Assembly: GCF_002007215.1 (NCBI RefSeq)
Contig: NZ_MUHX01000001.1
Span: 1 to 64,000, forward strand
Length of the DNA: 64,000 nucleotides
Direction of reading: 5' to 3'
Source: Pyramidobacter sp. C12-8
GTDB lineage: Bacteria; Synergistota; Synergistia; Synergistales; Dethiosulfovibrionaceae
Part shown: positions 30,582 to 52,632 of the stretch, piece after piece
Numbering within the stretch: the stretch's first letter is position 1
Layout of the letters: each line of letters begins with the position of its first letter
Notes under the pieces: model-generated
What the model saw: the letters and a program-made list of their open reading frames with translations, nothing else
What the model was told of the DNA's origin: nothing
Database searches by the model: none
Position numbers and translations under genes: made by a program

Positions 30582-30618
30582 GGGCTGTCGCGCGATATTT
30601 CGTGCCGCAGCCCTTTTT
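30582..30618 (+). terminator. rho-independent terminator
   Basis: GGGCTG(T) pairs with (G)CAGCCC and is followed by TTTTT, upstream of the first serine dehydratase gene. Confidence 0.65.
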
Positions 30619-30697
30619 CAGCGCTGTTTTATATATATTATTAGATAAATTTATGTTATGCTTTTCACTTCGTTTAAGTCATTTTGGAGGAATATCC

Positions 30698-32302: not shown

Positions 32303-32409
32303 CGGAGCCAGGCGATTGAAATTTACGATCGAAATTCAGCGTGAAACAGAAAACGTTTTCAACATACGACCGCCCCGCGTGGTTTATTACAAAATATGGA
32401 GGAATACAT

Positions 32410-36112: not shown

Positions 36113-36362
36113 TACAGCCCCACCTCGATTTATGTCCATCATAACAAATTTCCGCTTGAATCACATCATGAATATCTCAGAAGATGAAGATCTCAAGGTT
36201 TTCAACAAAGTTTTTTCCATTCAGTCGAAAAATCTTTGTCTATGTATACAAAATAATTTTATTTTTTTGTTGCAAGAAAAATTTTTATGCTAATATTGAA
36301 TTACATCGTACGATGCTGCAGGGACAGTTCGGCAAATTTTATTCCAAAAGGAGCGCGACGCA

Positions 36363-37391: not shown

Positions 37392-37429
37392 GCTGCTTGT
37401 CAATTTCCCCTTGCAAATAAAATAGGTCC

Positions 37430-37453
37430 TTTAATATCGCTCAGGATATTAAA
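37430..37453. repeat. 9-bp inverted repeat
   Basis: TTTAATATC and GATATTAAA are separated by GCTCAG. It sits in the gap between the OCD-family and GltS-type genes and could be an operator (perhaps for RpiR) or a small hairpin. Confidence 0.4.
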
Positions 37454-37459
37454 AGAATG

Positions 37460-37531
37460 AGGCCGCTGCAAGTGAAAGAATGAGGTTTTGCATAGAAATA
37501 GTTCTGTTCTCTCTCTAAGCGGCCTTTTATT
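37460..37531 (+). terminator. possible long-loop terminator
   Basis: AGGCCGCT (from 37460) can pair with AGCGGCCT (37518-37525), followed by TTTATTT. The loop is about 50 nt, so it may instead be part of a larger leader fold. Confidence 0.35.
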
Positions 37532-37635
37532 TAGGAGCGTTTTGTAAGTAAATATACGATGATATTGGTTTTTATAGGTGCAAAGTGACATAAAAATTGT
37601 ATTTTTTGCCGTATTTCAGGAAAGGAGCTCAAAAC

Positions 37636-39018
37636 ATGTTCCCTTTGGAAAAAATTACGAGCGGCACTATTAATAATCTGCTCCTATATATCAGTATTGT
37701 TGGTCTGTTACTTGTCGTTGCCAGTCTTATCCGACTCAAAGTACATTTTTTACGCAAAGCCTTTATTCCTGCTTCGCTACTGGCTGGAGTTATTGGTTTG
37801 GCTTTAGGCCCCTACGCGCTAAAAATTATCCCTGCTGCAATGATGACATCTATTGGTGCTTTACCAAGCTCAATGATCACGATTGTATTCTCTTGTATGT
37901 TGCTGGGAGTGAAAAAAGAGAAGACGGGAGAATATGCGCTGCATGACAGCGTCACGGGGCTTCTTTGGCTATGGTCGAATAGTTTTATGCAGGTGGGCGT
38001 CACCGCACTGTTGTGTGTCGTTTTGTTTACTCCGTTTTTTGGTGTTAACCCGCTGTTTGGCTCCCTGTTTGAGATCGGCTTTGCTGGCGGACATGGAACG
38101 GCGGGTGGCATGGCCTCGCTTTTCGAAGATCCTAAGTTGCTTAACTGGATTGATGGTGCATCCTTGGCACCTACCGTAGCTACGATCGGCCTTCTTATCG
38201 GTATTTTCGGCGGTATGGGGGCTATCAACTATGGAGTTCGTAAGAGATACACAAAAGTTCTGACTGGGCCAACAAGCGGCGGAGACTCGCGGGAGATCTA
38301 TCCTGAAGGTAATCGCGAGGCAAGTGCCAAGATGACGGTCAGTCAAGATGTTGTTGAACCTTTTGCCCTTCATTTAGGCGTTATTGGTATCGCTGTTATT
38401 GTTGGGCGCCTGATCGTGTGGAGTTTTGGCGCCATATTCAAGTACAAGGGATTGCCGCTTTTCCCTTTTGCCATGATTGGCGGGTGGTTGATCAACATTG
38501 TCATTCAGCATACGTCACTCCACGATCTTTTTGATCGTGCCACTTTTCAGCGTATCCAAGGCATGGCCCTTGAAATTCTGATCGTCGCAGCGATGGCTTC
38601 TATCAAGATTCCAGTTGTGGTCGAATATTGGATGCCGCTGCTGATTGCTACTGTCATTATTACAGTCTTCATGTATTTCTGGCTGTTCTGGCTGAGCCCG
38701 CGCGTTTTTTCCCATTGTTGGTTTGAGCAGGGCATCATTCGGTTCGGTGCATTTACTGGAGTAGCTGCCGTTGGCTATATGCTGCTTCGTACGTCCGATC
38801 CTAAGATGGAGACGGATGCTGGAACCATTTATGCTCTTGGGTGTCCTCTCATGAGCCCTTTTATCGGCGGTGGGCTAGTGACGACAATGTATCCGTACTT
38901 TATCAAAAACTTTGGCGCGTTGGCGACAGGGTTGACTCTCTGTACGGCTTCAATTGCCCTGATCGTTGTGATGCGTTTGTTCTTCTGGAATAGGGCCATT
39001 CAGAAACAACAGCGATAA
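37636..39018 (+). CDS. GltS-type sodium/glutamate-like symporter
   Basis: The 460-residue protein has about ten to twelve membrane spans in two repeats, and resembles the glutamate:sodium symporter (GltS/ESS) family. Features are FIPASLLAGVIGLALGPYAL near 45, FEIGFAGGHGTAGGMASLFED near 150 (first re-entrant loop), and FGAFTGVAAVGYMLLRTSDP with YALGCPLMSPFIGGG near 370-425. It is longer than classical GltS (about 400 residues). The family imports glutamate with sodium. The local enzymes hint at a related acidic amino acid or conjugate. ATG 37636 follows AAAGGAG. The opine-DH-like gene follows after 29 bp, indicating an operon. Confidence 0.8.
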   Translation: MFPLEKITSGTINNLLLYISIVGLLLVVASLIRLKVHFLRKAFIPASLLAGVIGLALGPYALKIIPAAMMTSIGALPSSMITIVFSCMLLGVKKEKTGEYALHDSVTGLLWLWSNSFMQVGVTALLCVVLFTPFFGVNPLFGSLFEIGFAGGHGTAGGMASLFEDPKLLNWIDGASLAPTVATIGLLIGIFGGMGAINYGVRKRYTKVLTGPTSGGDSREIYPEGNREASAKMTVSQDVVEPFALHLGVIGIAVIVGRLIVWSFGAIFKYKGLPLFPFAMIGGWLINIVIQHTSLHDLFDRATFQRIQGMALEILIVAAMASIKIPVVVEYWMPLLIATVIITVFMYFWLFWLSPRVFSHCWFEQGIIRFGAFTGVAAVGYMLLRTSDPKMETDAGTIYALGCPLMSPFIGGGLVTTMYPYFIKNFGALATGLTLCTASIALIVVMRLFFWNRAIQKQQR

Positions 39019-39047
39019 GTCTATTTTATGCGAGAGGAAGCTTTTTT

Positions 39048-40139
39048 ATGGAAGCGAGTGTTGCAGTTATTGGTGCAGGGAATGGCGGAACGGCAATCGC
39101 CGCATACCTTTCCAGCCAAGGCGTAAAAGTAAATCTATGTGACCCTTTTCCACAGTACATTGCCGGCATTCAACAAGCAAATGGCGTTAATCTAACCGTG
39201 AACGGGCGAACATCGCACTGTCAGTTGAATTTAGTGACGACTGATATTCCTCTTGCCATTCAGGATATTCATTTGATCATGGTTGTCACACCTTCTTTTA
39301 CTCATCGGTTGATTGCAGAAGCTTGTTTCAATGCGTTGGAAGAGGGACAGACTGTTGTCTTGAATCCTGGACGTACTGGCGGAGCTTTGGATTTTCTCAA
39401 TGTAATCCGTAGCCGGGGCTGCAAGGCTGACGTTACCATTGCGGAGGCACAGACACTGATCTATGCCTGTCGTAAGACGGGGCCCTCGTCTGTGGAAATC
39501 AGCGGTATAAAGAAAAAGATCCTTCTGGGAGCTCTTCCGGCAAACCGTACGGAACAGGTATTGGCAATGCTCAGGCCTTTTTATCCACAGTTCGTGGCAG
39601 CGAAGAACTGTCTGGAGACAAGTCTTTCTAACATTGGTGCGCTTTTCCATCCAACGCCGCTGTTGCTGAATATCGGTAGGGTTGAGAGTGAAACTGGTGG
39701 TTTTCGTTATTACCTTGATGGGATTTCCCCTTCCGTGACTGTTCTTGTCAAAGAGATTGACAATGAACGTATGGCCGTTGCCGCTGCTTATGGTGTGAGC
39801 GTCCTCAGTGCAGAAGAATGGCTGGTTGAATCGTATGATACTCATGGAGAGGATTTGTATCATTTGATTCAGAATAATGCCGCCTACAGCACAATCAAGG
39901 CACCAAAGACAATTGATGCCCGTTATATTACTGAGGATGTACCAATGAGCCTTGTGCCAATCTCCGAGCTGGGGCGTAAAGCGGGCGTTGCCACGCCCAA
40001 TATCGACGCTGTTATCCAGCTGACAAGCGCAATCTATAAACGAGATTTCCGAGCGAGCGGTCGCTGTTTAAAGAATCTTAGCCTTGACAGTATGGAGAGG
40101 GAACAAATCATTCATTATTTTGAGACTGGCAGCCGTTGA
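39048..40139 (+). CDS. octopine/nopaline (opine) dehydrogenase family protein, copy 2
   Basis: The 363-residue protein has an N-terminal Rossmann domain (MEASVAVIGAGNGGTAIAAYLSSQG; VVTPSFTHRLIAEACFNAL near 83) and the C-terminal opine-dehydrogenase domain (SLSNIGALFHPTPLLLNIGRVESETGGFRYYLDGISPSVTVLVKEIDNERMAVAAAYG, residues 190-245, with the conserved Asn-His pair, and ARYITEDVPMSLVPISELGRKAGVATPNID near 305-330). It is a distant paralogue of the module A protein at 21.5 kb. The classic octopine dehydrogenase motif GAGNGG is intact, so catalysis is plausible. It follows the GltS-type symporter by 29 bp. Cleavage of an imported amino-acid conjugate is inferred. Confidence 0.87.
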   Translation: MEASVAVIGAGNGGTAIAAYLSSQGVKVNLCDPFPQYIAGIQQANGVNLTVNGRTSHCQLNLVTTDIPLAIQDIHLIMVVTPSFTHRLIAEACFNALEEGQTVVLNPGRTGGALDFLNVIRSRGCKADVTIAEAQTLIYACRKTGPSSVEISGIKKKILLGALPANRTEQVLAMLRPFYPQFVAAKNCLETSLSNIGALFHPTPLLLNIGRVESETGGFRYYLDGISPSVTVLVKEIDNERMAVAAAYGVSVLSAEEWLVESYDTHGEDLYHLIQNNAAYSTIKAPKTIDARYITEDVPMSLVPISELGRKAGVATPNIDAVIQLTSAIYKRDFRASGRCLKNLSLDSMEREQIIHYFETGSR

Positions 40140-40554
40140 TCTGAATTGGTGTTAATAACTATTTCTTAATTGAAACGCTGAATAGCAATAGCGCTCCGAG
40201 GGAGATCCACAAAGCGAATTGCACGGACTGCGCAGCCGGCGAGACAGGCCCGAGCGACTGGACTCCCTTGGAGTGCTTCAGGACTGTCGTTAAACTATTC
40301 TATTAAGAATCAGTATTAGAATCCATGCTCGCTCTGATTACTGGTATGAGAATAACTGACCTTTCTCCATCGTACATGCCCCTATTATGGCCAGCACGGA
40401 GATATCCTCCCTTGTCATTGAACCGGAGCGTTCTAGACGTGTTAACCACTTTATGAATCTCGGCATCGATCCTTTCCACACCGTCAAATGAGCCATGGGC
40501 ACCCTGGATTAGGTTAAGCACGAGACATGAAGCGCAGCTTACGCCGAGACTCTG
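40140..40554. other. degenerate intergenic stretch
   Basis: No intact gene. A minus-strand open frame (40303-40746) has no recognisable family or ribosome binding site. The plus strand probably contains decayed 5' sequence of the ISL3-like transposase that follows. Confidence 0.45.
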
Positions 40555-40905
40555 TTGGCTGCACAGACTCATCCCAGAGATAAGGAATGCCTGACGAATG
40601 GCGATACGAAAGCTTGGCTTGTTGCGGCGACAAGAGGACGGGCGGAGAAAATCGAAAATGTAGCCTACACTCTTGACAAGGCACCAGAACATCAGCTGGA
40701 AAAGCAGCAGATCTGGATCGCCACAATTGCTGAGAATAGCAGCCATCTCTGTCGCGCATACCGTATGAAAGAAACGCTTCGACGGCTTCTAAAAATCGAA
40801 GACACCAACGAGGTAGAAGCAGATCTGAAAAGGTGGCTTTTGTGGACGGGCTACAGCAAAAATCCGGCTTTCAAAAACCTGTATCAGAAGGTCAAGTGCC
40901 ACTAA
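40555..40905 (+). pseudogene. ISL3-like transposase C-terminal remnant
   Basis: About 116 codons remain open with a pattern like the C-terminal region of ISL3-family transposases: EHQLEKQQIWIATIAENSSHLCRAYRMKETLRRLLKIED, then a KRWLLWTGYSKNPAFKNLYQKV segment. In the family this corresponds to the AYxLKExLR helix and the region before the final DDE Glu. The N-terminal zinc-binding and helix-turn-helix parts and most of the catalytic domain are absent or scrambled, so it is a dead fragment. The assignment is by pattern only. Confidence 0.6.
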
Positions 40906-40991
40906 AAATATATAGTCTTTATTATTTTAGGGGCTAGAACAGCTGCTTTGGCATGACCGGATGTTCATAATATAATTTAGGAGGCGTTAAT

Positions 40992-42403
40992 ATGAAATCT
41001 GTGGTTATTGTTTTTGCGATTCTTGCTACGCTTCTATTAACCTATGGATTGAGCATGCTGATGACAAGAAAGGCAGAAAAAAGAGTGTTAGTGTAGATGA
41101 TTGGGAAGTCGGCGGCCGCGAGCTTCCTCTGTATGTCGTTGTAGGTACACAATTTGCTACAGCAATGGGAGGTGGAATTCTAGTCGGACAAGTTGGCAAT
41201 GGATTCAGTAACGGATATTCAGTGATGCTTTACGGCATTCTGTGCCAGTTGTCTTTTGTTATTCTTATGTTCGTCGCTAAATGGTTGCGCGAACATAAGT
41301 TTGCGACTGTTCCTGAAATTTTACTGCACTATTCAGGTCCTAGCAAAACTGTGAGGATTCTGGCTGGCTTGATGACTATCGTTGTTCCATTTGGCTGGTG
41401 CTGTTCAAATTTAACAGCATTTGCAAAATTATATACGACAATTACAGGTATCCCCTTAAATATCTTGATTTGCGCTATGGCTGTCCTGTGTGTATTTTTT
41501 GTATTGCCTAGCGGACTTAAAACAGTAGCATGGACGGATTTTGTCTTTGGTTGTCTGATGTTTATCATCGGTACAACGATAGCAATTGCAACAGCGAGAA
41601 TGGCTGGCGGCATGTCACATGTGATGAGGACAGTTCCTCAGGATATTGTACAGTTCCCGAGCTCATTATTCAGTGTCGGTTTATCTACGAGTATTTTATG
41701 GATTTTTTCACTCACTCCTGGTGGACTGACAAATCAGATGTATTATCAGCGTATCCTTGCTTGTAAAGAAACGAACAAGGTTATTAAAAGTCTAGCTATT
41801 TCTGCTTTCTGTGCACTGTTAGCCTATGTTTGGGCTATTGTCGTTGGACTGAGTGTTCGTTCCATGAACCCTGGACTTGAACGGGAAATGGCAACGGGAT
41901 GGTTGATGAACGAATTACCTCTATGGGCGGTTGCGGTCTTTTCTGGATTGGTTGTATGCACGATTCTTTCCACAATCAGTTCTGGTATCCAATCGGTAGT
42001 TGTTAATTTGAATCGTGATATTTACCGTGTGCTGAATCCTCGAGTCTCGGAGAAATCCGCTGTACAGATAAACCGCGTTCTCTCTGTGATCGTGCTGGCG
42101 GCAGCGGCTTTGATTGCTATGTATTTTCCCCAGGTACTCAACCTCCTCGTGTTGACCTATTCGTATTCGGCTGCCGGGCTTGTTTGCCCGATCTTCCTCG
42201 GCTATATGCTACGCCGTAAGGGAATTATCACAAAGAATGGGCTCATCGCCGGCATGATCCTTGGTGTTGGAGTCTGTGCCTATTCTATGCACTTTAAGTC
42301 GGTCATTCCTTATGTGATCTGGGGTTGCCTTGCTTCTGGCGTGGCGATGATTGTTTTCAGTAAATTGGACAAGAAGAATCCCGCTTATCTGGAAGAAAAA
42401 TAA
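40992..42403 (+). pseudogene. sodium:solute symporter with an N-terminal frameshift
   Basis: The gene starts at ATG 40992 (TAGGAGGCG upstream) with a first membrane span (MKSVVIVFAILATLLLTYGLSML). The frame then stops at TAG 41094-41096. A -1 shift in the six-A run at 41077-41082 restores KSVSVDDWEVGGRELPLYVVVG, the expected SSS-family continuation, and the frame stays open to 42403. The rest has about twelve spans (GGGILVGQVGNGFSNG, LPSGLKTVAWTDFVFGCLMFIIGT, GLTNQMYYQRILACK, SAAGLVCPIFLGYMLRRKG) and belongs to the sodium:solute symporter family. It may be a pseudogene, an assembly or sequencing indel, or be translated by slippage or from ATG 41165. The substrate is unknown. Confidence 0.8.
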
Positions 42404-42422
42404 GAGCGGGGGGATGATAATT

Positions 42423-43292
42423 ATGAACGGTCAGTCGCCAGCAAGAATAGCTTGTGTACAGATGGATGTTGTACAGGGAAATGTGGGACAGAATCTTGAT
42501 ACCGCCCAGCGAATGATCGAGCAAGCCTGTCAAAATGGGGCCAATCTGCTTGTTCTGCCTGAAATGTATAATACCGGTTGCGTGTTTGACAGGCGTTCCG
42601 ACGTGTTTGCGCTTGCGGAAGCGGTGCCGAATGGAAGAAGCTCTCGGATGCTGGAGAATATAGCTCGTAAACATGGCATTTATATTGTCGCCTCATTGGT
42701 GGAGAAGGAAGAAAACGATCTCTTTAATACTGCAATATTAGTGGGACCTGACGGTTTTGTAGGCAAATATCGCAAGCTTCATCCCTGCGAAGATGAAGTC
42801 TATTGGGTTGAACCGGGAAATCTCGGTCTGCCAGTGTTTCATACGCGTATAGGTCGCATTGGTGTAATTATTTGTCTTGATGCATATTACCCAGAGACGT
42901 TTCGCATACTTGCATTGCAGGGCGCAGACATTGTCTGTGTCCCATCCAACTGGAGTGACGTCAAGGAAACACGCGCTTTACCGGATCCTTATTGGACAAT
43001 GGCTCCTGTACTGTGCATGGCGAATGCTCTCTCCAACCACATCATTGTTGCTGGCACGAACCGCGTGGGACAAACAGGAAAGATGAAATTCCCCGGACAG
43101 AGTATTATTGTCGGACCATGGGGAAATCCAATTGCGGGGCCCGGGCTCATGAAAGAAGGAGTTATCTACGCTGACGTTGATCTGTGTGACAGTAGGCGCA
43201 AATATTTCCATCCGACAAACAGCCGTCTCGCGAACCGTCGGATTGACGTGTACAGTTATGACCTAGGTTATCGTCCTGAAAAATATATGTAG
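42423..43292 (+). CDS. nitrilase-superfamily carbon-nitrogen hydrolase
   Basis: The 289-residue enzyme has the full Glu-Lys-Cys triad of the superfamily: ANLLVLPEMYNTG (Glu near residue 46), GKYRKLHPCEDEVYW (Lys near 118) and IGVIICLDAYYPETFR (Cys near 152). It shows the nitrilase-like amidase layout (QMDVVQGNVGQNLDTAQRMI at the N-terminus, GQSIIVGPWGNPIAG near 225). Members hydrolyse omega-amides, carbamoyl groups or nitriles in the cytoplasm. It starts about 20 bp after the symporter frame, with GCGGGGGG 9 bases before ATG 42423; ATG 42414 is possible. It is the last gene of module B. An amide-bearing amino acid is a likely class of substrate, inferred from context. Confidence 0.87.
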   Translation: MNGQSPARIACVQMDVVQGNVGQNLDTAQRMIEQACQNGANLLVLPEMYNTGCVFDRRSDVFALAEAVPNGRSSRMLENIARKHGIYIVASLVEKEENDLFNTAILVGPDGFVGKYRKLHPCEDEVYWVEPGNLGLPVFHTRIGRIGVIICLDAYYPETFRILALQGADIVCVPSNWSDVKETRALPDPYWTMAPVLCMANALSNHIIVAGTNRVGQTGKMKFPGQSIIVGPWGNPIAGPGLMKEGVIYADVDLCDSRRKYFHPTNSRLANRRIDVYSYDLGYRPEKYM

Positions 43293-44287: not shown

Positions 44288-44441
44288 GGATCGATCCGCT
44301 CCTTATCATGATGTTCATTTTGCCGCGATCTCGCTTATCATACCTGATAAAACCTTAAAAGAGAATTCCCAGCGTCGGAAAGTCCGGCGAGACGTATAGT
44401 TTCCTTACGGAACAAACGGCCGCTCCCGACGAAAAATACGA

Positions 44442-44473
44442 AAAAGCCCCGCCGTGCAGACGGCAGGGCTTTC
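44442..44473 (-). terminator. terminator of the tRNA-Gly/Asp operon
   Basis: On the minus strand AAAGCCCTGCCGT pairs with ACGGCGGGGCTTT (one G-T pair), followed by further T residues. It lies just downstream of tRNA-Gly. Confidence 0.85.
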
Positions 44474-44481
44474 ATTCTTAA

Positions 44482-44556
44482 TGGAGCGGAAGACGGGATT
44501 TGAACCCGCGACCCCAACCTTGGCAAGGTTGTGCTCTACCCCTGAGCTACTTCCGC
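44482..44556 (-). tRNA. tRNA-Gly (GCC anticodon)
   Basis: Read on the minus strand: acceptor GCGGAAG pairs with CTTCCGC, the D-arm is GCTC...GAGC, the anticodon stem CAACC/GGTTG carries a GCC anticodon, the T-arm contains GGTTCAAATCC, and a CCA is encoded. 75 nt. Confidence 0.95.
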
Positions 44557-44564
44557 GTGGAAAA

Positions 44565-44641
44565 TGGCGGGGCTGAAGAGACTCGAACTCTCGACCTTCG
44601 GCGTGACAGGCCGACGCTCTAACCGACTGAGCTACAACCCC
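44565..44641 (-). tRNA. tRNA-Asp (GTC anticodon)
   Basis: Read on the minus strand: acceptor GGGGTTG with CAGCCCC (G-T pairs), the anticodon stem GTCGGCC...CGCCGA around loop CTGTCAC (anticodon GTC), T-arm GAGTTCGAGTCTC, discriminator G and encoded CCA. It is 8 bp upstream of tRNA-Gly in the same transcript. Confidence 0.95.
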
Positions 44642-44660
44642 ATCCACGAACGCGACACGT

Positions 44661-44689
44661 AATATACCAGACTTGGATTCCTTTGTCAA
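44661..44689 (-). promoter_or_regulatory. promoter of tRNA-Asp/tRNA-Gly
   Basis: On the minus strand TTGACA (44689-44684), a 17-bp spacer and TATATT (44666-44661) end about 20 bp before tRNA-Asp. Confidence 0.85.
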
Positions 44690-44806
44690 AGGGCAATTTA
44701 AAGCTCTGTCTTTTATCAACCGTTCTTCCTGTGACCATAAGCCTGAGTCTTGTAGATTTTGCGATTGGGCCATTTTAAACAGTGAAAGAACAATATATAA
44801 TGAAAA

Positions 44807-45010
44807 ATGCCACACAGAATGGCGCAGCTCTCAAAGGGGCATGGACTGGGGATGGTCGCCGCGGGTCCCAACGCCGTCGAGCTGAGCGGCGGCGACAGCT
44901 ACCGGCCCCGCGTGGGAAAGCGCATCTTCCTCATCGACCGCACCGAGTACCTAATCCCCGCCGACGGCGGAACGGTCGAAAAGGGGCGCTTGAGACGGCG
45001 GCTGGTGTGA
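44807..45010 (+). pseudogene. unidentified gene remnant
   Basis: A 67-codon high-GC frame includes HGLGMVAAGPNAVELSGGDSY and KRIFLIDRTEYLIPADGGTVEKGRL. It looks like genuine coding sequence, with strand-like alternation and natural codon use. However, it has no family I recognise, no ribosome binding site, and is much shorter than a typical domain. It is probably the residue of a deleted gene between the tRNAs and the PucR-linked cassette. It could also be an unrecognised small protein. Confidence 0.3.
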
Positions 45011-45072: not shown

Positions 45073-45927
45073 GTGAAAGTGCAGATTTCATTGACTGTCG
45101 AAGCGGGCAAGCGTTTGATCGCCAAAGCGATATCGACGCTGCCCGCCGTTCGGAGGGCGCTGGCGGAGGGGCGGCTGCTCCTTAAGGGCGGCACGACCGT
45201 TTCGCTGATTTCCGAAGCGGTCTGCGGCGTTCCGCTGAAGATCTGCGGGCGCATCGACCGCCGCGGCGCCGGTTCCTGCGCCGGAAACTGCGCGGCCCCT
45301 CACAGCCTTCTGCTGCATCGGGGCGTTCCTGCGCCGCTGGACGCCGAGCTTTGGTCCTCCGGAAAATTGAGATTTTCGCCGGGCGACGCCTGCGTGATCG
45401 GCGCCAACCTCGTGGATCGTCACGGACGCGCGGCGATGCTGGCCGGAAGCCCTTTCGGCGGAGCGCTGCACTTTTTTACGAGCCTTCCCGCCGAAGGCGT
45501 GGAGATGATCGTTGCGGCCGGACTCGAAAAATACGCGCCCTGTTCGCTGGACGACGCCGTGGCCGCCGCGTCGCGTCTCGCCCCCGATCTGTCCATGGGC
45601 ATGGCGGCAGGTCTGATTCCCATCCCCGGCCGCGTAATCAACGAAGCGGAAGCCTGCAAGATCCTCGGCGCCGCGGAAGTGCAGATTGTCGCGCGGGGCG
45701 GCATCCAGGGCGCGGAAGGCGGCTGCACGCTGCTGGCGAGCTTTGACGAACGCCCTCAGGGCGAGGCGTTCTTCAACGAAATTCTGGCGTTGTCCGGCAC
45801 GGTTTTTCAAAAAAGCGCGGGCGACGCAAAGTCGCTGAAAAGCTGTCTTGACACCGCTTGCGGCCCGACCGGCGCGGAGCACCGCGGCTGCTGGTACCGA
45901 AGCCGCCGCAGAGAACTTCCGGTCTAG
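45073..45927 (+). CDS. conserved-looking protein of unknown function, PucR-linked
   Basis: I do not recognise the family. The 284-residue protein (GTG start at 45073, GGAGGGG 5 bases upstream) is cytosolic, with alternating strands and helices. Notable segments are GRLLLKGGTTVSLISEAVCGVPLKICGRIDRRGAGSCAG (residues 35-73), SPGDACVIGANLVDRHGRAAMLAGSPFGGALHFF near 100-135, DLSMGMAAGLIPIPGRVINEAEACKILGAAEVQIVARGGIQGAEGGCTLL (170-225), and several Cys. The repeated GG/GAEG turns suggest a ligand- or nucleotide-binding fold. Its stop is 10 bp before the PucR regulator, so the two are co-transcribed. It probably belongs to the racemase/DUF917 pathway downstream. Confidence 0.6.
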   Translation: MKVQISLTVEAGKRLIAKAISTLPAVRRALAEGRLLLKGGTTVSLISEAVCGVPLKICGRIDRRGAGSCAGNCAAPHSLLLHRGVPAPLDAELWSSGKLRFSPGDACVIGANLVDRHGRAAMLAGSPFGGALHFFTSLPAEGVEMIVAAGLEKYAPCSLDDAVAAASRLAPDLSMGMAAGLIPIPGRVINEAEACKILGAAEVQIVARGGIQGAEGGCTLLASFDERPQGEAFFNEILALSGTVFQKSAGDAKSLKSCLDTACGPTGAEHRGCWYRSRRRELPV

Positions 45928-45937
45928 GATGGCCGTC

Positions 45938-47053
45938 ATGTTTACCGTTGCCGACATGCTCGAGCTGCCCGTTTTCGCCGGCCATGAAATCGCTGCGGGC
46001 AAAAAAGGGACGGGAAACCGCGTCCGCTTCATCGATTTCATCGAGATCCCCGACCCTTCCGGCTGGTGCCGCCCCGACACGTTCTCCTTCACGACCGGTT
46101 ACGCCTTCCGCAACAATCCCGAGCAGATCTGCCGCATCATCCGCGTCTTGAGCGCAGGCAGAGCCGCCGGGCTGGGCGTCAAGCTGGGACGTTTCATCAG
46201 CGCGATCCCGCCGCAGGCGTTCAGCCTCGCCGACGAGCTGGACTTTCCCCTGGTCATCCTGCCCAAAGGACTGGCTTATGCCGTTGTCTCGCGCACGGTC
46301 ATGCGCGAGATATTCCGTACTGAACGGAGCTGTCGCGACGACGCCGGCGAGCCTCTCAGCCTTTTTCAGCTGGAGCAGGATCCCGTCGGCCTGCTCGAGT
46401 CGCTGAAACGGCAGGGCTGGGAAAGCTCCCGGAGCGTATGGAGCCTGCAATGGGAGAATCTGCCGCCGCAGCGGCCTTCCCTGCCGCCGCCGCGCGCTTT
46501 CCAGTACAGCGCCAACAGCTCCCTGCGCATGCTCGTCGCTCAGCTGCCCGGCGAGCGGGCGGATCACTTCGTCGAATTTCTGAAATGCTGCCTGCCGCAG
46601 CAGATGGAACGCCAAAGCCTGGGCATCTCCGGCCCCGCGCCGCTGAAAAATATCGTCCAGAGCTTCGCGGAAGCGAGAGCGGCCCTGCAGCTCGGCGCAC
46701 AGCTCGGCTTCGACGAAGGCGTCTTCGTCTACTCGGAGCTGGAACTTCTGGATCTCCTCAAAAAGAACCGGCCGCCGGCCGAGCTTCAGGAGGCCGCCTC
46801 GCGCTGTCTGCGTCCCCTCCTCGACGAAGACGTGAAAAAGCATTCCAGTCTCGCGCAGACCCTTCGCGTCTGGTTCGCCTGCGACGGTTCCTCCGAAAAA
46901 GCCGCTCAACGGCTGCACATCCATCGCAACACCCTGCTTTACCGCCACAAGCGGATCATGGAACTTCTCCCCCTGAACCGATACGGCTCAACGCCGTTCC
47001 GTCTGGCGCTGTTTTTTCTGTACGCGAAAAACGACGCCGGCGGAGAATCGTAA
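45938..47053 (+). CDS. PucR-family transcriptional regulator
   Basis: The 371-residue protein has the PucR N-terminal sensor domain (MFTVADMLELPVFAGHEIAAGKKGTGNRVRFIDFIEIPD, then FTTGYAFRNNPEQICRIIRVLS, residues 1-120). A central region contains FAEARAALQLGAQLG, and the C-terminal PucR-type HTH is TLRVWFACDGSSEKAAQRLHIHRNTLLYRHKRIMELLPLN (about 320-360). PucR activators typically control purine, amino-acid or hydantoin catabolic genes in response to the substrate. The likely targets are the OPT-racemase-DUF917-DUF1177-AroM genes downstream. ATG 45938 has an AGGA at 8 bases; ATG 45929 in the same frame is possible. Confidence 0.9.
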   Translation: MFTVADMLELPVFAGHEIAAGKKGTGNRVRFIDFIEIPDPSGWCRPDTFSFTTGYAFRNNPEQICRIIRVLSAGRAAGLGVKLGRFISAIPPQAFSLADELDFPLVILPKGLAYAVVSRTVMREIFRTERSCRDDAGEPLSLFQLEQDPVGLLESLKRQGWESSRSVWSLQWENLPPQRPSLPPPRAFQYSANSSLRMLVAQLPGERADHFVEFLKCCLPQQMERQSLGISGPAPLKNIVQSFAEARAALQLGAQLGFDEGVFVYSELELLDLLKKNRPPAELQEAASRCLRPLLDEDVKKHSSLAQTLRVWFACDGSSEKAAQRLHIHRNTLLYRHKRIMELLPLNRYGSTPFRLALFFLYAKNDAGGES

Positions 47054-47109
47054 AAGCTCCCTGAAGGAACGCGTTTTGAAAGGACGCTCCTTCAGGGGGC
47101 TTTATTTTT
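47054..47109 (+). terminator. rho-independent terminator after pucR
   Basis: AAAGCTCCCTGAAGGA pairs with TCCTTCAGGGGGCTTT (one G-T pair) around a loop of about 20 nt, followed by ATTTTTA. It separates the regulator unit from the OPT operon. Confidence 0.8.
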
Positions 47110-47126
47110 AGAATTGTGCGCCTGCA

Positions 47127-47220
47127 TAATTTGATACTGTATTTTTATGCAAAAATATATTTATTATATTATTTAGCATGATAAAATTCAATAAGATCTC
47201 TAAAAACTTTATCGACGGGA
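47127..47220 (+). promoter_or_regulatory. AT-rich promoter region of the OPT operon with inverted repeat
   Basis: Very AT-rich stretch between the terminator and the OPT gene. GCATAA (from about 47132) and TTATGC form an inverted repeat with about 17 nt between, a possible PucR operator. Exact -35/-10 assignment is uncertain. Confidence 0.35.
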
Positions 47221-47288
47221 GGGTTATGTGCAGGCATTTCTTTTGAGAAGGTCTTACCATTTTCGACGAAGGTCAGGAGGTCAGTCAC

Positions 47289-48920
47289 ATGTCAGAAGAG
47301 AAAAAAGTTCCGCACGTCAAGGCTTTCGAGGGGCAAACGTTTGTCATCAGCGCGCTGGTTTCCGTCTTTTCGGCGGTCATCTGTATGCAGATCATCTCCC
47401 GCATCGGAACGACGCCGAACACATCCGTCATCGGCGCGCTGTTCGCCATGGCGCTTGCCAGGATCCCCTTCGCCAGGCTGAGCCGATTCCGCAGCCTGGA
47501 CCGACAGAATCTGGTGCAGACGATGGCTTCGGCCGCCGGATTCGGCGCGGCCAATTGCTGCCTGCTTGCCGTCGGGATCCTCTACGTTTTCGGCGATCCT
47601 TCCCTGATCGTGCCGATGCTTATCGGATCCGGTATGGCGACGCTGATCGGCATGCATCTCGTTTATTCGCTGTTCGATTCCGAGATGTTCCCCGCCCGGG
47701 AATCGTGGGCGCCGGGGATCGCCACCGCGGAAGCGCTGATCGCTGGAGACGAAGGCGGTAAAAAAGGACGTACGCTTTTGAGCGGCATCGTTTTAGGCGC
47801 GGCAGGCGCCGGATGCCGGATCAAGCCTTTTCTTTCCGGCGGTCTTCCCATGGCCGGCGTCGGCATCGCGTTTATCGCCAACCCATGGGCCATGTCGGCT
47901 CTGGCTGCGGGGCTTTTGATCCGCGGCTATTATCCGAGCCTTGTCCCTTGGCTCAGTTCTCTTGGACTGACGAATCTCCCGGCCGATCTCGGGAAAACGT
48001 ACATCCCGCACGGTTTTATGATCGGCGCCGGGTTGATCTCGCTGATCCAGGCGCTCGTCATGATCTTCAAAAAATCCGTCCGCGAGTTCTCGTCCGAAAG
48101 CGCGCCCACGGTGACTCACGCGGCGGCTAAGAAAGCCATCGCCGCCCATATTGGATATTTCGCCGTGGCGGCTGTCATTTTGGCGGCCATTACCGGGTTC
48201 ATGACTTCCATGGAGACACCCAAGCTCATTCTCTGGGGTGTCTGGTGCACGTTTTCGTCGATCTCCGCCGCAATCCTGGTCGGGCTGTGCGCCATGTTCT
48301 CGGGCTGGTTCCCCGGTTTTGCCGTGACCGTGATTTTCGTCAGCCTCGGCCTGTTCATGAACTTTCCGCCGGCGGCGCTGGCGGTGCTGGCAGGCTTCGT
48401 TTCCAGCACGGGCCCATGTTTTGCCGACATGGGATACGATCTGAAGACGGGCTGGGTCATCAGAGGAAGCGGGAAGAATCGCGAGTACGAACTGGACGGA
48501 CGTCGCCAGCAGATGTTTTCCGAACTCTTCGGCGGCCTGATCGCTGCTGTGGTGGTCGGACTTTTGATGAAGATGCATTTCAATCTCAATCTGCTTCCAC
48601 CCGTCAGCCGGGTTTTCGCGGCCACGATCCAGGCGGGTTCCGATTATGCGATCCTTCTTGAAATGCTGTGCTGGGCCGTCCCCGGCGCGCTTCTGCAGGT
48701 CGCCGGCGGTTCGAAAAAGGCGCTGGGCATTCTCTGCGCCACGGGACTGCTGATCCGCAACCCCATTTACGGCGTCGGCCTGGTGGTCGCCCTGATCCTG
48801 CGGGCGCTCTTCATCAAAAACCACGAAGAGGCGATGCAGCTCTACGGCGCGGGTTTCGTGGCCGGCGACGGGCTTTTCGGTTTCTTCAACGCCATCGGGC
48901 GTTCCTTCGGTTGGTGGTAA
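47289..48920 (+). CDS. OPT family transporter
   Basis: The 543-residue protein has about fourteen membrane spans and the oligopeptide transporter (OPT) superfamily pattern: KAFEGQTFVISALVSVFSAVICMQIISRIGTTPNTSVIGALFAMALARI at the N-terminus, ESWAPGIATAEALIAGDEGGKKGRTLLSGIVLGAAGAG near 135, and KKALGILCATGLLIRNPIYGVGLVVALILRAL near the end. Bacterial OPT members import peptides or amino-acid conjugates with protons. It is the first gene of a five-gene unit with a racemase, DUF917, DUF1177 and AroM proteins, so it is probably the uptake system of that pathway. GGAGGTCAG precedes ATG 47289. Confidence 0.88.
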   Translation: MSEEKKVPHVKAFEGQTFVISALVSVFSAVICMQIISRIGTTPNTSVIGALFAMALARIPFARLSRFRSLDRQNLVQTMASAAGFGAANCCLLAVGILYVFGDPSLIVPMLIGSGMATLIGMHLVYSLFDSEMFPARESWAPGIATAEALIAGDEGGKKGRTLLSGIVLGAAGAGCRIKPFLSGGLPMAGVGIAFIANPWAMSALAAGLLIRGYYPSLVPWLSSLGLTNLPADLGKTYIPHGFMIGAGLISLIQALVMIFKKSVREFSSESAPTVTHAAAKKAIAAHIGYFAVAAVILAAITGFMTSMETPKLILWGVWCTFSSISAAILVGLCAMFSGWFPGFAVTVIFVSLGLFMNFPPAALAVLAGFVSSTGPCFADMGYDLKTGWVIRGSGKNREYELDGRRQQMFSELFGGLIAAVVVGLLMKMHFNLNLLPPVSRVFAATIQAGSDYAILLEMLCWAVPGALLQVAGGSKKALGILCATGLLIRNPIYGVGLVVALILRALFIKNHEEAMQLYGAGFVAGDGLFGFFNAIGRSFGWW

Positions 48921-48999
48921 GCGCATTGTATCTTCGACGTGACCGGCAGCGCCATGCTTCCATAAAAACGGCGCTGCCGTGAAAGGGTGTGAAAATTCG

Positions 49000-49650
49000 A
49001 TGTCGGAGAAGAAAAAAATCGGTCTAATCCGCGTCCTGACGACGCCGGATCAGGAGTTGCTCCAGCTTCACGGGCGTATGATCGAATCGTGTTTTCCCGG
49101 TCTGTCCGTCGAATCGCGGTGCATCGCCGATCAGGACGAAGGGATCCATGACGAGGCAAGTCATGCGAAGGCGCTGCCCAAGGTGCTGGCGCTGGGGCGC
49201 GCTTTCGCGGACGAAAACGTCGACGCCGTCTATATCAGCTGCGCCGGCGATCCCGGCGTCGGCATCCTCCAACGGGAGCTCGCCGTCCCGGTCGTCGGCG
49301 CCGGCACGGCGACGGCGCACGTGGCCAGCGCCTACGGGGTTTCCGTGGGAGTGTTGGGGATCACGGACGACGTACCGGAAGAGATCGCAAAAATTTTAGG
49401 CGGCCGTATCGTCGGTTCTCTGCGCCCGCCGCAGATCCATACGACGCTGGATCTGTTCCGCCCCGACGCGATGGACGCGCTCGCGGAAGCCGGCTGTGCG
49501 CTGAAAAGCAAGGGCGCCAAGCTGCTCCTTCTGGCCTGCACCGGTTTGGCGACGATCAACGCCGCTCCGGAGCTGCGTCGCCGCGTCGGCTTGCCGGTGC
49601 TGGATCCGCTGCGCTGCGCGGCCACCTGCCTGTGGACGGCCTTGTGTTGA
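49000..49650 (+). CDS. Asp/Glu/hydantoin racemase family protein
   Basis: The 216-residue protein has two pseudo-symmetric halves of the Asp/Glu racemase superfamily: KIGLIRVLTTPDQELLQLHGRMIESCFPG, DAVYISCAGDPGVGILQRELAVPVVGAGTATAHVA (first catalytic Cys near residue 85), VLGITDD, and GAKLLLLACTGLATINAAPELRRRVGLPVLDPL (second catalytic Cys near 180). Both cysteines needed for proton transfer are present, so racemase or epimerase activity on an amino acid or hydantoin is plausible. Malonate decarboxylases in the superfamily keep only one Cys, which argues against that role. It sits between the OPT transporter and DUF917 genes. Confidence 0.87.
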   Translation: MSEKKKIGLIRVLTTPDQELLQLHGRMIESCFPGLSVESRCIADQDEGIHDEASHAKALPKVLALGRAFADENVDAVYISCAGDPGVGILQRELAVPVVGAGTATAHVASAYGVSVGVLGITDDVPEEIAKILGGRIVGSLRPPQIHTTLDLFRPDAMDALAEAGCALKSKGAKLLLLACTGLATINAAPELRRRVGLPVLDPLRCAATCLWTALC

Positions 49651-49663
49651 AGGAGGTCTTTGC

Positions 49664-50743
49664 ATGTCTCGATTGAAACTGACTCAGGAACACGTGGAAG
49701 CCGCGCTGCTGGGCGGCTGTTTTCTTGGCGGTGGCGGCGGCGGTTCGATGGCCAAGGGGCGCGCGCTCGGCGAAGCGGCTCTTTCCTCCGGTCCGTTGGA
49801 ACTGGTCTCGCTGGACGAGATCGATCCCGAAGCGGTCGTCGTCACCTGTTCGGCGGTGGGTGCGCCGGCCTCGAAAGAAGCGATGGCCAAGCCCGAAGCG
49901 GCCATGCGCGTCATTGAATTGATGGCAAAACTGGACGTGTCGCCTCCGGCCGGACTGATCACCAACGAAAATGGCGGCGGCTCGACGTTCAACGGCTGGC
50001 TGCCGGCCGCCATGAGCGGGCTGCCCCTGATCGACGCGCCGTGCAACGGACGCGCGCATCCCACCGGCGTCATGGGATCTATGGCGTTGCACCGCGACAA
50101 TCGTTACGTTTCGAAGCAGACGGCGGCGGGAGGAAATCCCGAGACGGGGCGCTACCTCGAAGCGGCTTTCAGCGGCCCCATGGAGGCCGTAGCGGCGCTT
50201 GTGCGGCAGTGCGCCGTTCAGGCCGGAGGACTGGTTGCGGTGGCCCGTAATCCGGTCAAAGCCCATTATTTGAAAGAACATGCCGCGCCGGGAGCCGTGA
50301 TGCTGGCCATCGAAACTGGGACGAAAATGCTTGAAGCCCGTTCCCGCGGAGCCGAAGCTGTTGTCCAGGCGGCGGTCGGCTTTCTCGGCGGCCGCGTCGT
50401 TACGGCGGGCACGGTGGACGCTATCGACCTGATTACCGAAGGCGGGTTCGACCATGGCGTCGTTTCCGCAGGCGGGTGCGAACTCGCGTTCTGGAACGAA
50501 TTCATGACGCTGGACCGCGGCGGCGAACGGCTGGGGACCTTCCCCGATCTGATCATGACCACGGACGCAGAAACCGGACTTCCCGTCACCACGGCGGAGC
50601 TCGCAAAGGGGCGGCGCGTTTTCGTGACGCTGGTCCCTGCGGACAGGATCCCTCTTGGCGCAGGCATGTTCTGCCGGGAACTTTTGGAACCTATCGAGAA
50701 GGTCGTCGGCAGGGACGTGCTGCCCTACGTCACGCTGAAGTAG
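49664..50743 (+). CDS. DUF917 family protein
   Basis: The 359-residue protein matches DUF917: LTQEHVEAALLGGCFLGGGGGGSMAKG (residues 6-32), VTCSAVGAPASKEAMAKPEA near 65, GLITNENGGGSTFNGWLPAAMSGLPLIDAPCNGRAHPTGVMGSM near 100-145, and TFPDLIMTTDAETGLPVTTAELAKGRRVFVTLVPADRIPLG near 290-330. One relative is an S-methyl thiohydantoin desulfurase, and many are annotated as hydantoinase/oxoprolinase-associated, so action on a hydantoin-like ring or amide is reasonable. The exact substrate is unknown. AAGGAGG precedes the ATG, 13 bp after the racemase stop. Confidence 0.87.
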   Translation: MSRLKLTQEHVEAALLGGCFLGGGGGGSMAKGRALGEAALSSGPLELVSLDEIDPEAVVVTCSAVGAPASKEAMAKPEAAMRVIELMAKLDVSPPAGLITNENGGGSTFNGWLPAAMSGLPLIDAPCNGRAHPTGVMGSMALHRDNRYVSKQTAAGGNPETGRYLEAAFSGPMEAVAALVRQCAVQAGGLVAVARNPVKAHYLKEHAAPGAVMLAIETGTKMLEARSRGAEAVVQAAVGFLGGRVVTAGTVDAIDLITEGGFDHGVVSAGGCELAFWNEFMTLDRGGERLGTFPDLIMTTDAETGLPVTTAELAKGRRVFVTLVPADRIPLGAGMFCRELLEPIEKVVGRDVLPYVTLK

Positions 50744-50811
50744 TGCAGCCGCCGTGTTCGCAATAACCGAAGAGAAAAAAATAGACGTAGAAAATCAAGG
50801 AGGTACCGATC

Positions 50812-51774
50812 ATGTCTCTTCTTTATACGATGAACGCGCTTGAACTGCTCGACTCGCCGTCCGTAAGCGGCGAGAGCGTCAAACAAGCGCTGATGGCCGC
50901 CGGCGTGCCGGGGGAACAGATCTCCGTCAAAACTGTTCACGGCCCCAAAGGCAGTACCGACTTCGTCAAAACGTGGTTCTACGGCTCCGAAGGCAAACAT
51001 AACGGCGGCACAGCTCCCACCATCGGTATCGTCGGCCGTCTCGGCGGCATCGGCGCGCGCCCCGAACGGATCGGGCTCGTTTCCGACGGCGACGGCGCCG
51101 TGTCGGCCGTGGCCGTCGCCATGAAACTGGGCGACATGGCGAAAAAGGGCGACGCGCTCAAAGGCGACGTGTTCGTCTCCACTCACATCTGCCCCAATTC
51201 TCCTACACGCCCTCACGATCCCGTGCCGTTCATGGGTTCTCCCATCAACATGACCATCGCCAACCGCGAAGAAATGGGCGAGGAGCTGGACGCCGTCCTG
51301 TCCATCGACACGACGCGCGGCAACCGGATCGTCAACGCCCGCGGCTTTGCCATCTCGCCGACGGTCAAGGAGGGCTGGATCCTGCGCGTCAGCGAAGATT
51401 TGCTCGAGATCATGAGCTCCGTCACGGGGGAGCTGCCCAAGGTTTTTCCCCTCAGCATGACCGACATCACGCCCTACGGCAACGGGCTCTATCACCTGAA
51501 CAGCATCCTCCAGCCCTGCACGGCCACCAAAGCGCCGGTCGTCGGCGTGGCGCTGACGTCGCAGACGACGGTCCCCGGCTGTGCTACGGGAAGCTCGCAA
51601 CCGATAGACATCGAGGCGGCCGTGCGCTTCGCCATCGAAACGGCGAAAGCGTTCGGCGAGGGCAAGTGCAAGTTTTACAGCGAGGAAGAATTCGATCTGA
51701 CCCTCAAACGTTACGGGGCCATGAACAAACTTCAAAGCATGGGCGATCTGCCGCCGGCGGATCCTCAGGCGTAA
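50812..51774 (+). CDS. DUF1177 family protein
   Basis: The 320-residue protein belongs to DUF1177, a family of unknown biochemical function. Recognisable blocks are TMNALELLDSPSVSGESVKQAL, GGTAPTIGIVGRLGGIGARPERIGLVSDGDGAVSAVAVAMKLGDM near 65-110, VFVSTHICPNSPTRPHDPVPFMGSPINM near 120-150 (two His and Cys that could bind metal), and VLSIDTTRGNRIVN near 165. The SDGDGA and HxxP-rich blocks resemble metallo-hydrolase active sites, so a peptidase or amidase function is my inference. It always occurs with OPT, AroM or DUF917 genes in the layouts I know. AAGGAGG precedes ATG 50812. Confidence 0.87.
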   Translation: MSLLYTMNALELLDSPSVSGESVKQALMAAGVPGEQISVKTVHGPKGSTDFVKTWFYGSEGKHNGGTAPTIGIVGRLGGIGARPERIGLVSDGDGAVSAVAVAMKLGDMAKKGDALKGDVFVSTHICPNSPTRPHDPVPFMGSPINMTIANREEMGEELDAVLSIDTTRGNRIVNARGFAISPTVKEGWILRVSEDLLEIMSSVTGELPKVFPLSMTDITPYGNGLYHLNSILQPCTATKAPVVGVALTSQTTVPGCATGSSQPIDIEAAVRFAIETAKAFGEGKCKFYSEEEFDLTLKRYGAMNKLQSMGDLPPADPQA

Positions 51775-51785
51775 GAGGCCCGGCC

Positions 51786-52460
51786 ATGACTTTGCGCGTA
51801 GGGACCGTCACCATTGGGCAGGCGCCAAGAACAGACGTCACGCCTGACCTTATGAAGATCCTCGGGGCGGAAGTGGAACTGATCGAAGCGGGAGCGCTGG
51901 ACGGCCTGAGTTCCGAACAGATCGCCGCCATGGCGCCGCGCCCGGGCGATTATGTGCTGGTCACGAGAATGGCCGACGGCACGTCCGTGAAAATCTGCGA
52001 ACGTGCGGTGACGCCGCTGCTGCGCCAAAAGATCGCCGCCCACTTCGCCGCGGGGATCCCCGCCGTCCTGCTGCTCTGCACGGGCGAGTTCCCCGACTTT
52101 CCAACCGGCGGGCTGCTGCTGAGGCCGCAGAAAATCCTGTTCAACATGGTTCAGGCCGTCGTGCCGGCCGGCGCGAAACTCGGCGTCTTCATGCCGTCGC
52201 CGGATCAGCTGGAACAGTCGTCGCGCCGCTGGTCGCAGATCACCGAGCAAAATCGTTCCATTGGCGCATCGCCCTACGTCCGTCCCGAAGAAACGATCCC
52301 CGCCGCGGCGGAAGAACTCGCCCGTTGGGGCGCCGACGCTCTCGTCATGGACTGCATGGGCTACACGCTGGCGATGAAGGAACAGGTTCGCCGAATTACC
52401 GGCAAACCCGTGATCCTCGCCCGCTCCATCGCCGCGCGGGTGTTGAGCGAGCTTGTGTAG
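51786..52460 (+). CDS. aroM: AroM family protein
   Basis: The 224-residue protein matches AroM of E. coli in length and pattern: MTLRVGTVTIGQAPRTDVTPDL at the N-terminus, EAGALDGLSSEQIAAMAPRPGDYVLVTRMADG near 35-65, and LLCTGEFPDF with RPQKILFNMV near 95-115. The C-terminal half has ADALVMDCMGYTLAMKEQVRRITGKPVILARSIAARVL. AroM was named from its position next to aroL but has no proved link to aromatic synthesis. Its fold is akin to Asp/Glu racemases, and here it closes a racemase-containing operon, consistent with a second racemase-like enzyme. A weak AAGAGG site precedes ATG 51786. Confidence 0.9.
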   Translation: MTLRVGTVTIGQAPRTDVTPDLMKILGAEVELIEAGALDGLSSEQIAAMAPRPGDYVLVTRMADGTSVKICERAVTPLLRQKIAAHFAAGIPAVLLLCTGEFPDFPTGGLLLRPQKILFNMVQAVVPAGAKLGVFMPSPDQLEQSSRRWSQITEQNRSIGASPYVRPEETIPAAAEELARWGADALVMDCMGYTLAMKEQVRRITGKPVILARSIAARVLSELV

Positions 52461-52586: not shown

Positions 52587-52632
52587 CGTTCCGCCCGTTC
52601 CAGTTTCGCGCGAAACCGGAACGGGCGGAACG
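52587..52632. terminator. bidirectional hairpin terminator
   Basis: CGTTCCGCCCGTTCC pairs with GGAACGGGCGGAACG. Inside, GTTTCGC/GCGAAAC continues the palindrome across one A/C mismatch, making a 46-bp almost perfect inverted repeat. A similar core is used at 59432-59469. Confidence 0.7.

What the first reader, a model, noticed from the sequence alone, without database searches (positions are those of the whole stretch)
45073..52460. PucR-controlled OPT-racemase-DUF917-DUF1177-AroM cassette plus an unrecognised protein
Three of the five structural genes belong to families of unknown or barely known function, and two (racemase and AroM) share a racemase-like fold. DUF917 includes a thiohydantoin desulfurase, and OPT transporters bring in peptides or conjugates. 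A coherent pathway for an imported cyclic or amide-linked amino-acid derivative is likely. The protein at 45073-45927, co-transcribed with pucR, matches no family I know and may be a new component.
Basis: partly seen in the sequence, partly recalled or inferred. Interest (0 to 1): 0.65.

Follow-up and report, generated by a model that had tools for sequence, protein, structure and literature searches.

The report
Cyclic-amide breakdown cassette with unnamed protein
An anaerobic bacterium carries a conserved seven-gene set that probably imports and dismantles ring-shaped amino-acid derivatives; one of its genes belongs to a widespread but unnamed protein family that keeps turning up beside such breakdown enzymes.

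Summary
All seven genes are at the stated places with the stated family assignments. The protein at 45073-45927 matches no Pfam or NCBIfam model but is real: 90-100% identical in the same genus, 39-47% in other Synergistota. In nine other Synergistota genomes its gene directly follows DUF1177, and in eight of them AroM comes next (the ninth contig ends), so it is a genuine, optional cassette component; in the window's genus it sits upstream of pucR. All cassette copies, including a Chloroflexi one, form one clade (100/100).

Distant relatives lie beside other ureide/hydantoin genes: ErtD/ErtE; carbamate kinase-allantoate amidohydrolase-purine permease. A closer copy sits with HyuA, racemases and DUF917. 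Profile and structure comparisons weakly but consistently place it in the RpiA/DeoR/LUD (ISOCOT) fold. DUF1177 is predicted to have the M17/M20 zinc-peptidase fold without their signature motifs.

Best reading: import, epimerisation, ring opening and amide hydrolysis of a cyclic amino-acid derivative (diketopiperazine or hydantoin type); the substrate is unproven. Part of the set (racemase, DUF917, AroM, OPT) is already published near cyclodipeptide oxidases. New here: the extra family, its fold and contexts, and the DUF1177 fold.

The parts
45073..45927 (+). Unnamed protein (284 aa), cassette component; predicted RpiA/DeoRC/LUD-like (ISOCOT) fold with a conserved cysteine-bearing C-terminal tail
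   Evidence: no family; homologues; neighbourhood; model, Foldseek; profile comparison, tail; tree
45929..47053 (+). PucR-type transcriptional regulator, one base downstream of the unnamed gene
47056..47107 (+). Inverted repeat and T-rich tail: probable terminator between the [unnamed-pucR] and [OPT...AroM] units
   Evidence: hairpin kept with changes in two congeners
47289..48920 (+). OPT-family transporter
   Evidence: PF03169
49000..49650 (+). [quoted passage not shown] Cys81 and Cys180 invariant
49664..50743 (+). DUF917 (S-Me-THD-like N and C domains), proposed cyclic-amide hydrolase; below the thiohydantoin desulfurase cut-offs
50812..51774 (+). DUF1177; predicted M17/M20 zinc-peptidase-like fold
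51786..52460 (+). AroM; racemase-superfamily relative with Cys98 and Cys190 invariant
52587..52632 (.). 20-bp stem hairpin between AroM and the convergent RND efflux genes, possible shared terminator

Best explanation
A PucR-regulated catabolic cassette for a small cyclic or heterochiral amino-acid derivative, most likely a diketopiperazine or hydantoin-type cyclic amide. Proposed course: the OPT protein imports the compound; the racemase inverts an alpha-carbon with its two-cysteine acid-base pair; DUF917 opens the ring; DUF1177, a peptidase-fold hydrolase, cuts the resulting amide; AroM acts as a second epimerase on another intermediate. The unnamed protein is an optional extra component with an ISOCOT-like fold, most likely an enzyme acting on a ring-opened or carbamoyl/amide intermediate. 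Shown here: gene identities, conserved order, clade structure, conserved cysteines, predicted folds. Inferred: substrate, order of steps, every catalytic activity, regulation by PucR.
For: Conserved order PucR/OPT-RAC-DUF917-DUF1177-[unnamed]-AroM in many Synergistota and a Chloroflexi MAG, and without the unnamed gene in Niallia; partial sets in Sodalis, Klebsiella, Paenibacillus and a haloarchaeon. Thirteen of 14 sampled Synergistota genomes with a cassette-clade copy also have DUF1177, against 22 of 151 overall; Fisher p = 3e-12, not corrected for kinship. The racemase has both cysteines and is closest to PDB 2eq5 'hydantoin racemase' (E 4e-55); AroM keeps both cysteines. DUF1177 model: Foldseek E 4e-9 to M17 aminopeptidases, 1e-8 to the DapE catalytic domain. 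Racemase, DUF917, AroM and OPT genes are enriched beside cyclodipeptide oxidases (PMC11055893); an Asp/Glu racemase homologue, NozR, isomerises diketopiperazines (PMC10156859). Unnamed-family members lie with HyuA, an NCS1 permease, two racemases, two DUF917, PepV and proline racemase (L070), with ErtD/ErtE (L033) and with carbamate kinase-allantoate amidohydrolase-purine permease (L045). ISOCOT fold: weak DeoRC, LUD and RpiA hits, Foldseek ranks topped by RpiA and eIF2B, hhalign 65-70% to DeoRC (whole family and distant subset) and 22-54% to LUD, against at most 2% for seven control families.
Against: No substrate or activity is shown for any of the seven proteins. DUF917 falls below its two characterised equivalogs. 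The unnamed protein is absent from about 9 of 22 DUF1177 genomes, so it is not essential to the core. ISOCOT support is weak: no Foldseek hit with E <= 0.001, TM-scores at most about 0.34 for the query, no profile match to IF-2B, and the cassette clade alone gives 1% to DeoRC. DUF1177 lacks the M20 HxD and M17 NTDAEGR motifs, and its model is poor around the possible active site. Most distant unnamed-family members, notably the archaeal ones, have neighbours with no obvious link to cyclic amides.
Confidence: 0.55

Rival explanations
1. The cassette handles damaged or D-residue-containing linear peptides (isoaspartyl, D-Asp/Glu or N-terminally cyclised peptides), with the two racemase-fold enzymes restoring L-configuration and DUF1177 and other peptidases cutting.
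For: OPT proteins are peptide-type carriers (family knowledge); Sodalis and Klebsiella plasmid versions have PepE and no DUF917; the Paenibacillus and Salinigranum versions lie next to ABC (dipeptide-type) transporters and an ArgE/DapE deacylase or an aminopeptidase; DUF1177 has a peptidase-like fold.
Against: DUF917, HyuA, ErtD/ErtE and allantoate-amidohydrolase contexts point to rings and ureides.
Confidence: 0.2
2. The unnamed protein is not an enzyme but a ligand sensor or partner of PucR, built from a DeoR-sensor-like domain without a DNA-binding part.
For: In the window's genus it is one base upstream of pucR and separated from the enzyme operon by a probable terminator; its best profile match is the DeoR sensor domain.
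Against: In nine other Synergistota genomes it is inside the enzyme operon after DUF1177 while pucR, where seen, is upstream of OPT; distant members occur without PucR.
Confidence: 0.25
3. Thiohydantoin/ergothioneine breakdown, with DUF917 as desulfurase.
For: DUF917 includes two thiohydantoin desulfurase equivalogs that this protein resembles; a distant unnamed-family gene lies beside ErtD/ErtE.
Against: Scores 274 and 268 bits against cut-offs 440 and 450; the window genome has only this one DUF917, and the examined cassettes lack an ErtD-type gene among their listed genes.
Confidence: 0.06
4. Unrelated neighbours: the unnamed gene sits next to the cassette by chance.
For: In this genus it is in a different transcription unit.
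Against: Same gene inside the operon in nine other Synergistota genomes and adjacent in a Chloroflexi MAG; one clade.
Confidence: 0.02

Closest known systems
Non-CDPS cyclodipeptide-oxidase gene clusters (PMC11055893)
   Same: Enriched in hydantoin-racemase family, DUF917, AroM and OPT genes.
   Different: That paper has no mention of DUF1177, and no cyclodipeptide oxidase was looked for or seen among the window's cassette genes.
Hydantoin/allantoin racemases (PF01177; PDB 2eq5, 3qvj, 5lfd)
   Same: The window racemase matches them and has the C-x2-DPG and ACTG cysteine motifs.
   Different: Substrate unknown; NCBIfam equivalogs not reached.
Thiohydantoin desulfurases (NF058529, NF058532)
   Same: Same family, full-length alignment.
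   Different: Far below the curated cut-offs.
DeoR sensor domain / LUD domain / RpiA (ISOCOT fold)
   Same: Glycine-rich GTT loop and D-x-x-x-x-G(A/T)N-A-x-D region align.
   Different: No HTH domain; no family cut-off reached; very remote.
M17 leucyl aminopeptidase / M20 DapE
   Same: DUF1177 model matches their catalytic-domain fold.
   Different: No HxD (M20) or NTDAEGR (M17) motif; no sequence match to any PDB chain.
Ergothioneine-utilisation genes ErtD/ErtE
   Same: Neighbours of a distant unnamed-family gene in a Rhodospirillales MAG, above cut-offs.
   Different: On the opposite strand there, and no DUF917 of the window type in that locus.

Membership tests
Thiohydantoin desulfurase (NF058529/NF058532) | Score above curated cut-off (440/450 bits) | tested here: not met
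   274 and 268 bits
DUF917 (S-Me-THD-like) | PF06032 and PF20906 above cut-off | tested here: met
   77 and 87 bits, cut-offs 27
Asp/Glu/hydantoin racemase | PF01177 above cut-off | tested here: met
   76 bits, cut-off 31
Asp/Glu/hydantoin racemase | Two catalytic cysteines | tested here: met
   Cys81 and Cys180 invariant in 12 sequences
Asp/Glu/hydantoin racemase | Racemase activity on hydantoins | not testable with these tools
   needs assay
AroM | PF07302 and NF007788 above cut-off | tested here: met
   262 and 223 bits
DUF1177 | PF06675 above cut-off | tested here: met
   434 bits
M17/M20 metallopeptidase | Catalytic-domain fold | tested here: met
   Foldseek E 4e-9 on a model of mean pLDDT 78
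M17/M20 metallopeptidase | Canonical motifs (HxD; NTDAEGR) | tested here: not met
   absent from the alignments of 15 and 17 DUF1177 sequences
DeoR-family regulator (unnamed protein) | N-terminal HTH plus DeoRC sensor | tested here: not met
   no HTH hit; DeoRC only below cut-off in 6 distant members
LUD family (unnamed protein) | PF02589 above cut-off | tested here: not met
   best E 0.024 in one relative
ISOCOT fold (unnamed protein) | Shared fold | tested here: inconclusive
   consistent but weak; no match to IF-2B
OPT transporter | PF03169 above cut-off | tested here: met
   59 bits, cut-off 26
PucR regulator | PF07905 and PF13556 above cut-off | tested here: met
   104 and 56 bits

The most novel reading that the evidence does not exclude
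The unnamed family is a new enzyme family of the RpiA/DeoR/LUD fold that carries out an undescribed step shared by several cyclic-amide and ureide catabolic systems (diketopiperazine/hydantoin cassette, ergothioneine-type and purine-ureide loci), and DUF1177 is a new branch of the M17/M20-fold hydrolases with an unusual active site.
Probability: 0.35. Interest if true: 0.65.

Novelty: new variant of a known kind. Interest (0 to 1): 0.5.

Why it matters
It gives an unannotated family, spread over Archaea and Bacteria, a testable role; gives DUF1177 a fold and hence a hydrolase hypothesis; and offers a compact operon in which DUF917, DUF1177, AroM and the unnamed protein can be assayed together on cyclic dipeptides and hydantoins, whose breakdown genes are poorly known.

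Tried and rejected
Thiohydantoin desulfurase for DUF917: below cut-off. PDB sequence searches for the unnamed protein and DUF1177: only chance-level hits. IF-2B as relative despite Foldseek ranks: no profile match. RpiA: only two Synergistota sequences found, too few for a profile. MTHFS: none in the 41 genomes with this model. Literature on DUF1177: one irrelevant paper; ergothioneine desulfurase: none held. A general substrate clue from archaeal neighbours of the unnamed family: none consistent. A conserved PucR operator between pucR and OPT was looked for in three congeners by alignment only; no palindrome was singled out.
Full report
WHAT IS THERE. The window is contig C100 of a 2.67 Mb genome in 182 contigs. 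It belongs to the Synergistota by inference: contig C39 of the same-order genome G030 has the same length and sequence match as a record named Synergistaceae bacterium. The seven genes were re-read and typed. The pucR start is probably 45929, one base after the stop of the unnamed gene. A hairpin with a T-rich tail follows pucR at 47056-47107; its sequence differs but its hairpin form remains in a congener (by inspection). The likely transcription units are therefore [unnamed-pucR] and [OPT-racemase-DUF917-DUF1177-AroM], the latter ending before a 20-pair hairpin at 52587-52632.

THE UNNAMED PROTEIN IS REAL AND PART OF THE CASSETTE. It has no Pfam or NCBIfam hit even at E 0.1. In a sample of 151 Synergistota genomes, 18 have a relative, and 38 further loci came from the GTDB genome collection, at 24-47% identity. 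In genomes G019, G016, G011, G047, G089, G130, G044 and G030 the gene lies between DUF1177 and AroM, and in G112 it follows DUF1177 at a contig end. In the window's genus it is upstream of pucR, and in a Chloroflexi MAG (L024) it is divergent from the racemase-OPT-DUF917-DUF1177-AroM row. Cassettes without it exist: several Synergistota (for example G061, G040, G049, G075), Niallia, Sodalis, Klebsiella, a haloarchaeon. Of 14 genomes with a close copy, 13 have DUF1177 (22 of 151 overall; Fisher p = 3e-12, kinship not corrected). The fourteenth, G007, has its copy at the very start of a contig, so its upstream side cannot be seen. In a maximum-likelihood tree the 11 cassette or close copies form one group with 100/100 support.

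OTHER CONTEXTS OF THE FAMILY. A second copy in G089 (L070) sits with HyuA (hydantoinase/oxoprolinase), PucR, a cytosine/purine-type permease, two racemase-family genes, two DUF917 genes, a PepV-type dipeptidase and a proline racemase. In a Rhodospirillales MAG (L033) a distant member overlaps an M20 carbamoylase-family gene and lies beside ErtE (590 bits, cut-off 520) and ErtD (652, cut-off 600), which are on the other strand. In a Peptococcaceae MAG (L045) a distant member lies between a carbamate kinase and an allantoate amidohydrolase-family gene (487 bits, cut-off 399), next to a purine permease. L033 and L045 group together in the tree (100/99) but on long branches. Many other distant members, especially archaeal ones, show no such link, so this is a recurrent association and not a rule. 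The loci were read because their neighbours looked interesting; no kinship-corrected enrichment was computed.

FOLD OF THE UNNAMED PROTEIN. AlphaFold2 on 46 sequences gave mean pLDDT 83, pTM 0.84. Foldseek against the PDB gave no hit at E <= 0.001, but the top ranks are mostly RpiA, eIF2B subunits and, lower down, CoA-transferase and MTHFS entries; TM-scores are low. Sub-threshold HMM hits include DeoRC in six members, LUD in one, RpiA in two, among other scattered chance hits. Profile-profile comparison gave 65-70% to DeoRC with the whole family or its distant part and 22-54% to LUD, against at most 2.1% for seven unrelated families. In calibration, LUD, DeoRC and IF-2B did not find each other (at most 0.9%), so the test is insensitive and a positive is notable; but IF-2B was not matched, and the cassette clade alone matched LUD and not DeoRC. 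I call the ISOCOT fold likely, not shown. The cassette clade also has a C-terminal tail with conserved cysteines (SLxEC... C...), disordered in the model.

DUF1177. Very conserved (mean column identity 71-76%), no PDB sequence relative. Its model (pLDDT 78) matches M17 leucyl aminopeptidases (E 4e-9) and the DapE catalytic domain (E 1e-8). It lacks HxD and NTDAEGR, though it has invariant Asp92, Asp94, His125, Asp166 and His228, which could bind metal (inference). The loops 79-90, 132-141 and 220-228 are poorly modelled.

THE TWO RACEMASE-FOLD ENZYMES AND DUF917. The racemase has Cys81 (SCAxDP) and Cys180 (ACTG), invariant in 12 sequences, and is closest to PDB 2eq5, called a hydantoin racemase. 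AroM has invariant Cys98 and Cys190 in 10 sequences. DUF917 aligns over its length with the thiohydantoin desulfurase models but far below their cut-offs. An Asp/Glu racemase homologue, NozR, acts on diketopiperazines (PMC10156859), and the CDO-cluster paper suggests DUF917 proteins are hydantoinases and AroM proteins isomerases, both untested (PMC11055893). Microbes that degrade both hydantoins and diketopiperazines are known, while two recombinant D-hydantoinases had no diketopiperazine activity (PMC3852281), so another enzyme is needed; DUF917 is a candidate (inference).

MECHANISM. Import (OPT), epimerisation (racemase), ring opening (DUF917), amide cleavage (DUF1177), second epimerisation (AroM), plus an optional step by the unnamed protein, under PucR. 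Every activity is inferred. The versions with PepE and without DUF917 keep the linear-peptide rival open.

NOVELTY. The core set is close to published clusters. What is added is the unnamed family as a cassette component, its likely fold, its recurrent ureide/hydantoin contexts, and the fold of DUF1177. That is a new variant of a known kind, of moderate interest.

Noticed in passing
window 30602-32302 and 32341-34014: Two tandem paralogous genes that look like single-chain L-serine dehydratases (from the sequence only), next to an ornithine-cyclodeaminase-like gene at 29466-30470.
   Followed up: no
window 35258-43292: A second amino-acid-type locus upstream: RpiR-like regulator, ornithine-cyclodeaminase-like gene, Na+/glutamate-symporter-like gene, opine-dehydrogenase-like gene, SSF symporter and CN-hydrolase; only the last two were checked by HMM.
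   Followed up: partly
window 44482-44641: tRNA-Gly and tRNA-Asp genes on the minus strand just upstream of the cassette; the 44405-44815 ORF overlaps them and is not a real gene.
   Followed up: yes
L107 (Klebsiella plasmid NZ_CP057460.1 174946-180353): IclR-OPT-DUF1177-AroM-PepE-racemase set on a conjugative plasmid, flanked by insertion sequences: the cassette is mobile.
   Followed up: partly
L078 9068-11787 and further: Distant unnamed-family member directly upstream of genes that look like threonine synthase, homoserine kinase and aspartokinase.
   Followed up: no
L026, L027, L030, L040, L043, L046, L047, L054: In Bathyarchaeota the unnamed-family gene constantly follows a gene of about 265 aa starting M(T)IIICLVG-x-H/YRR, of unknown role.
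   Followed up: no
L072 5122-6132: In G130 a second copy of the unnamed gene is split into two ORFs, next to AroM at a contig end: possible decay or assembly error.
   Followed up: no
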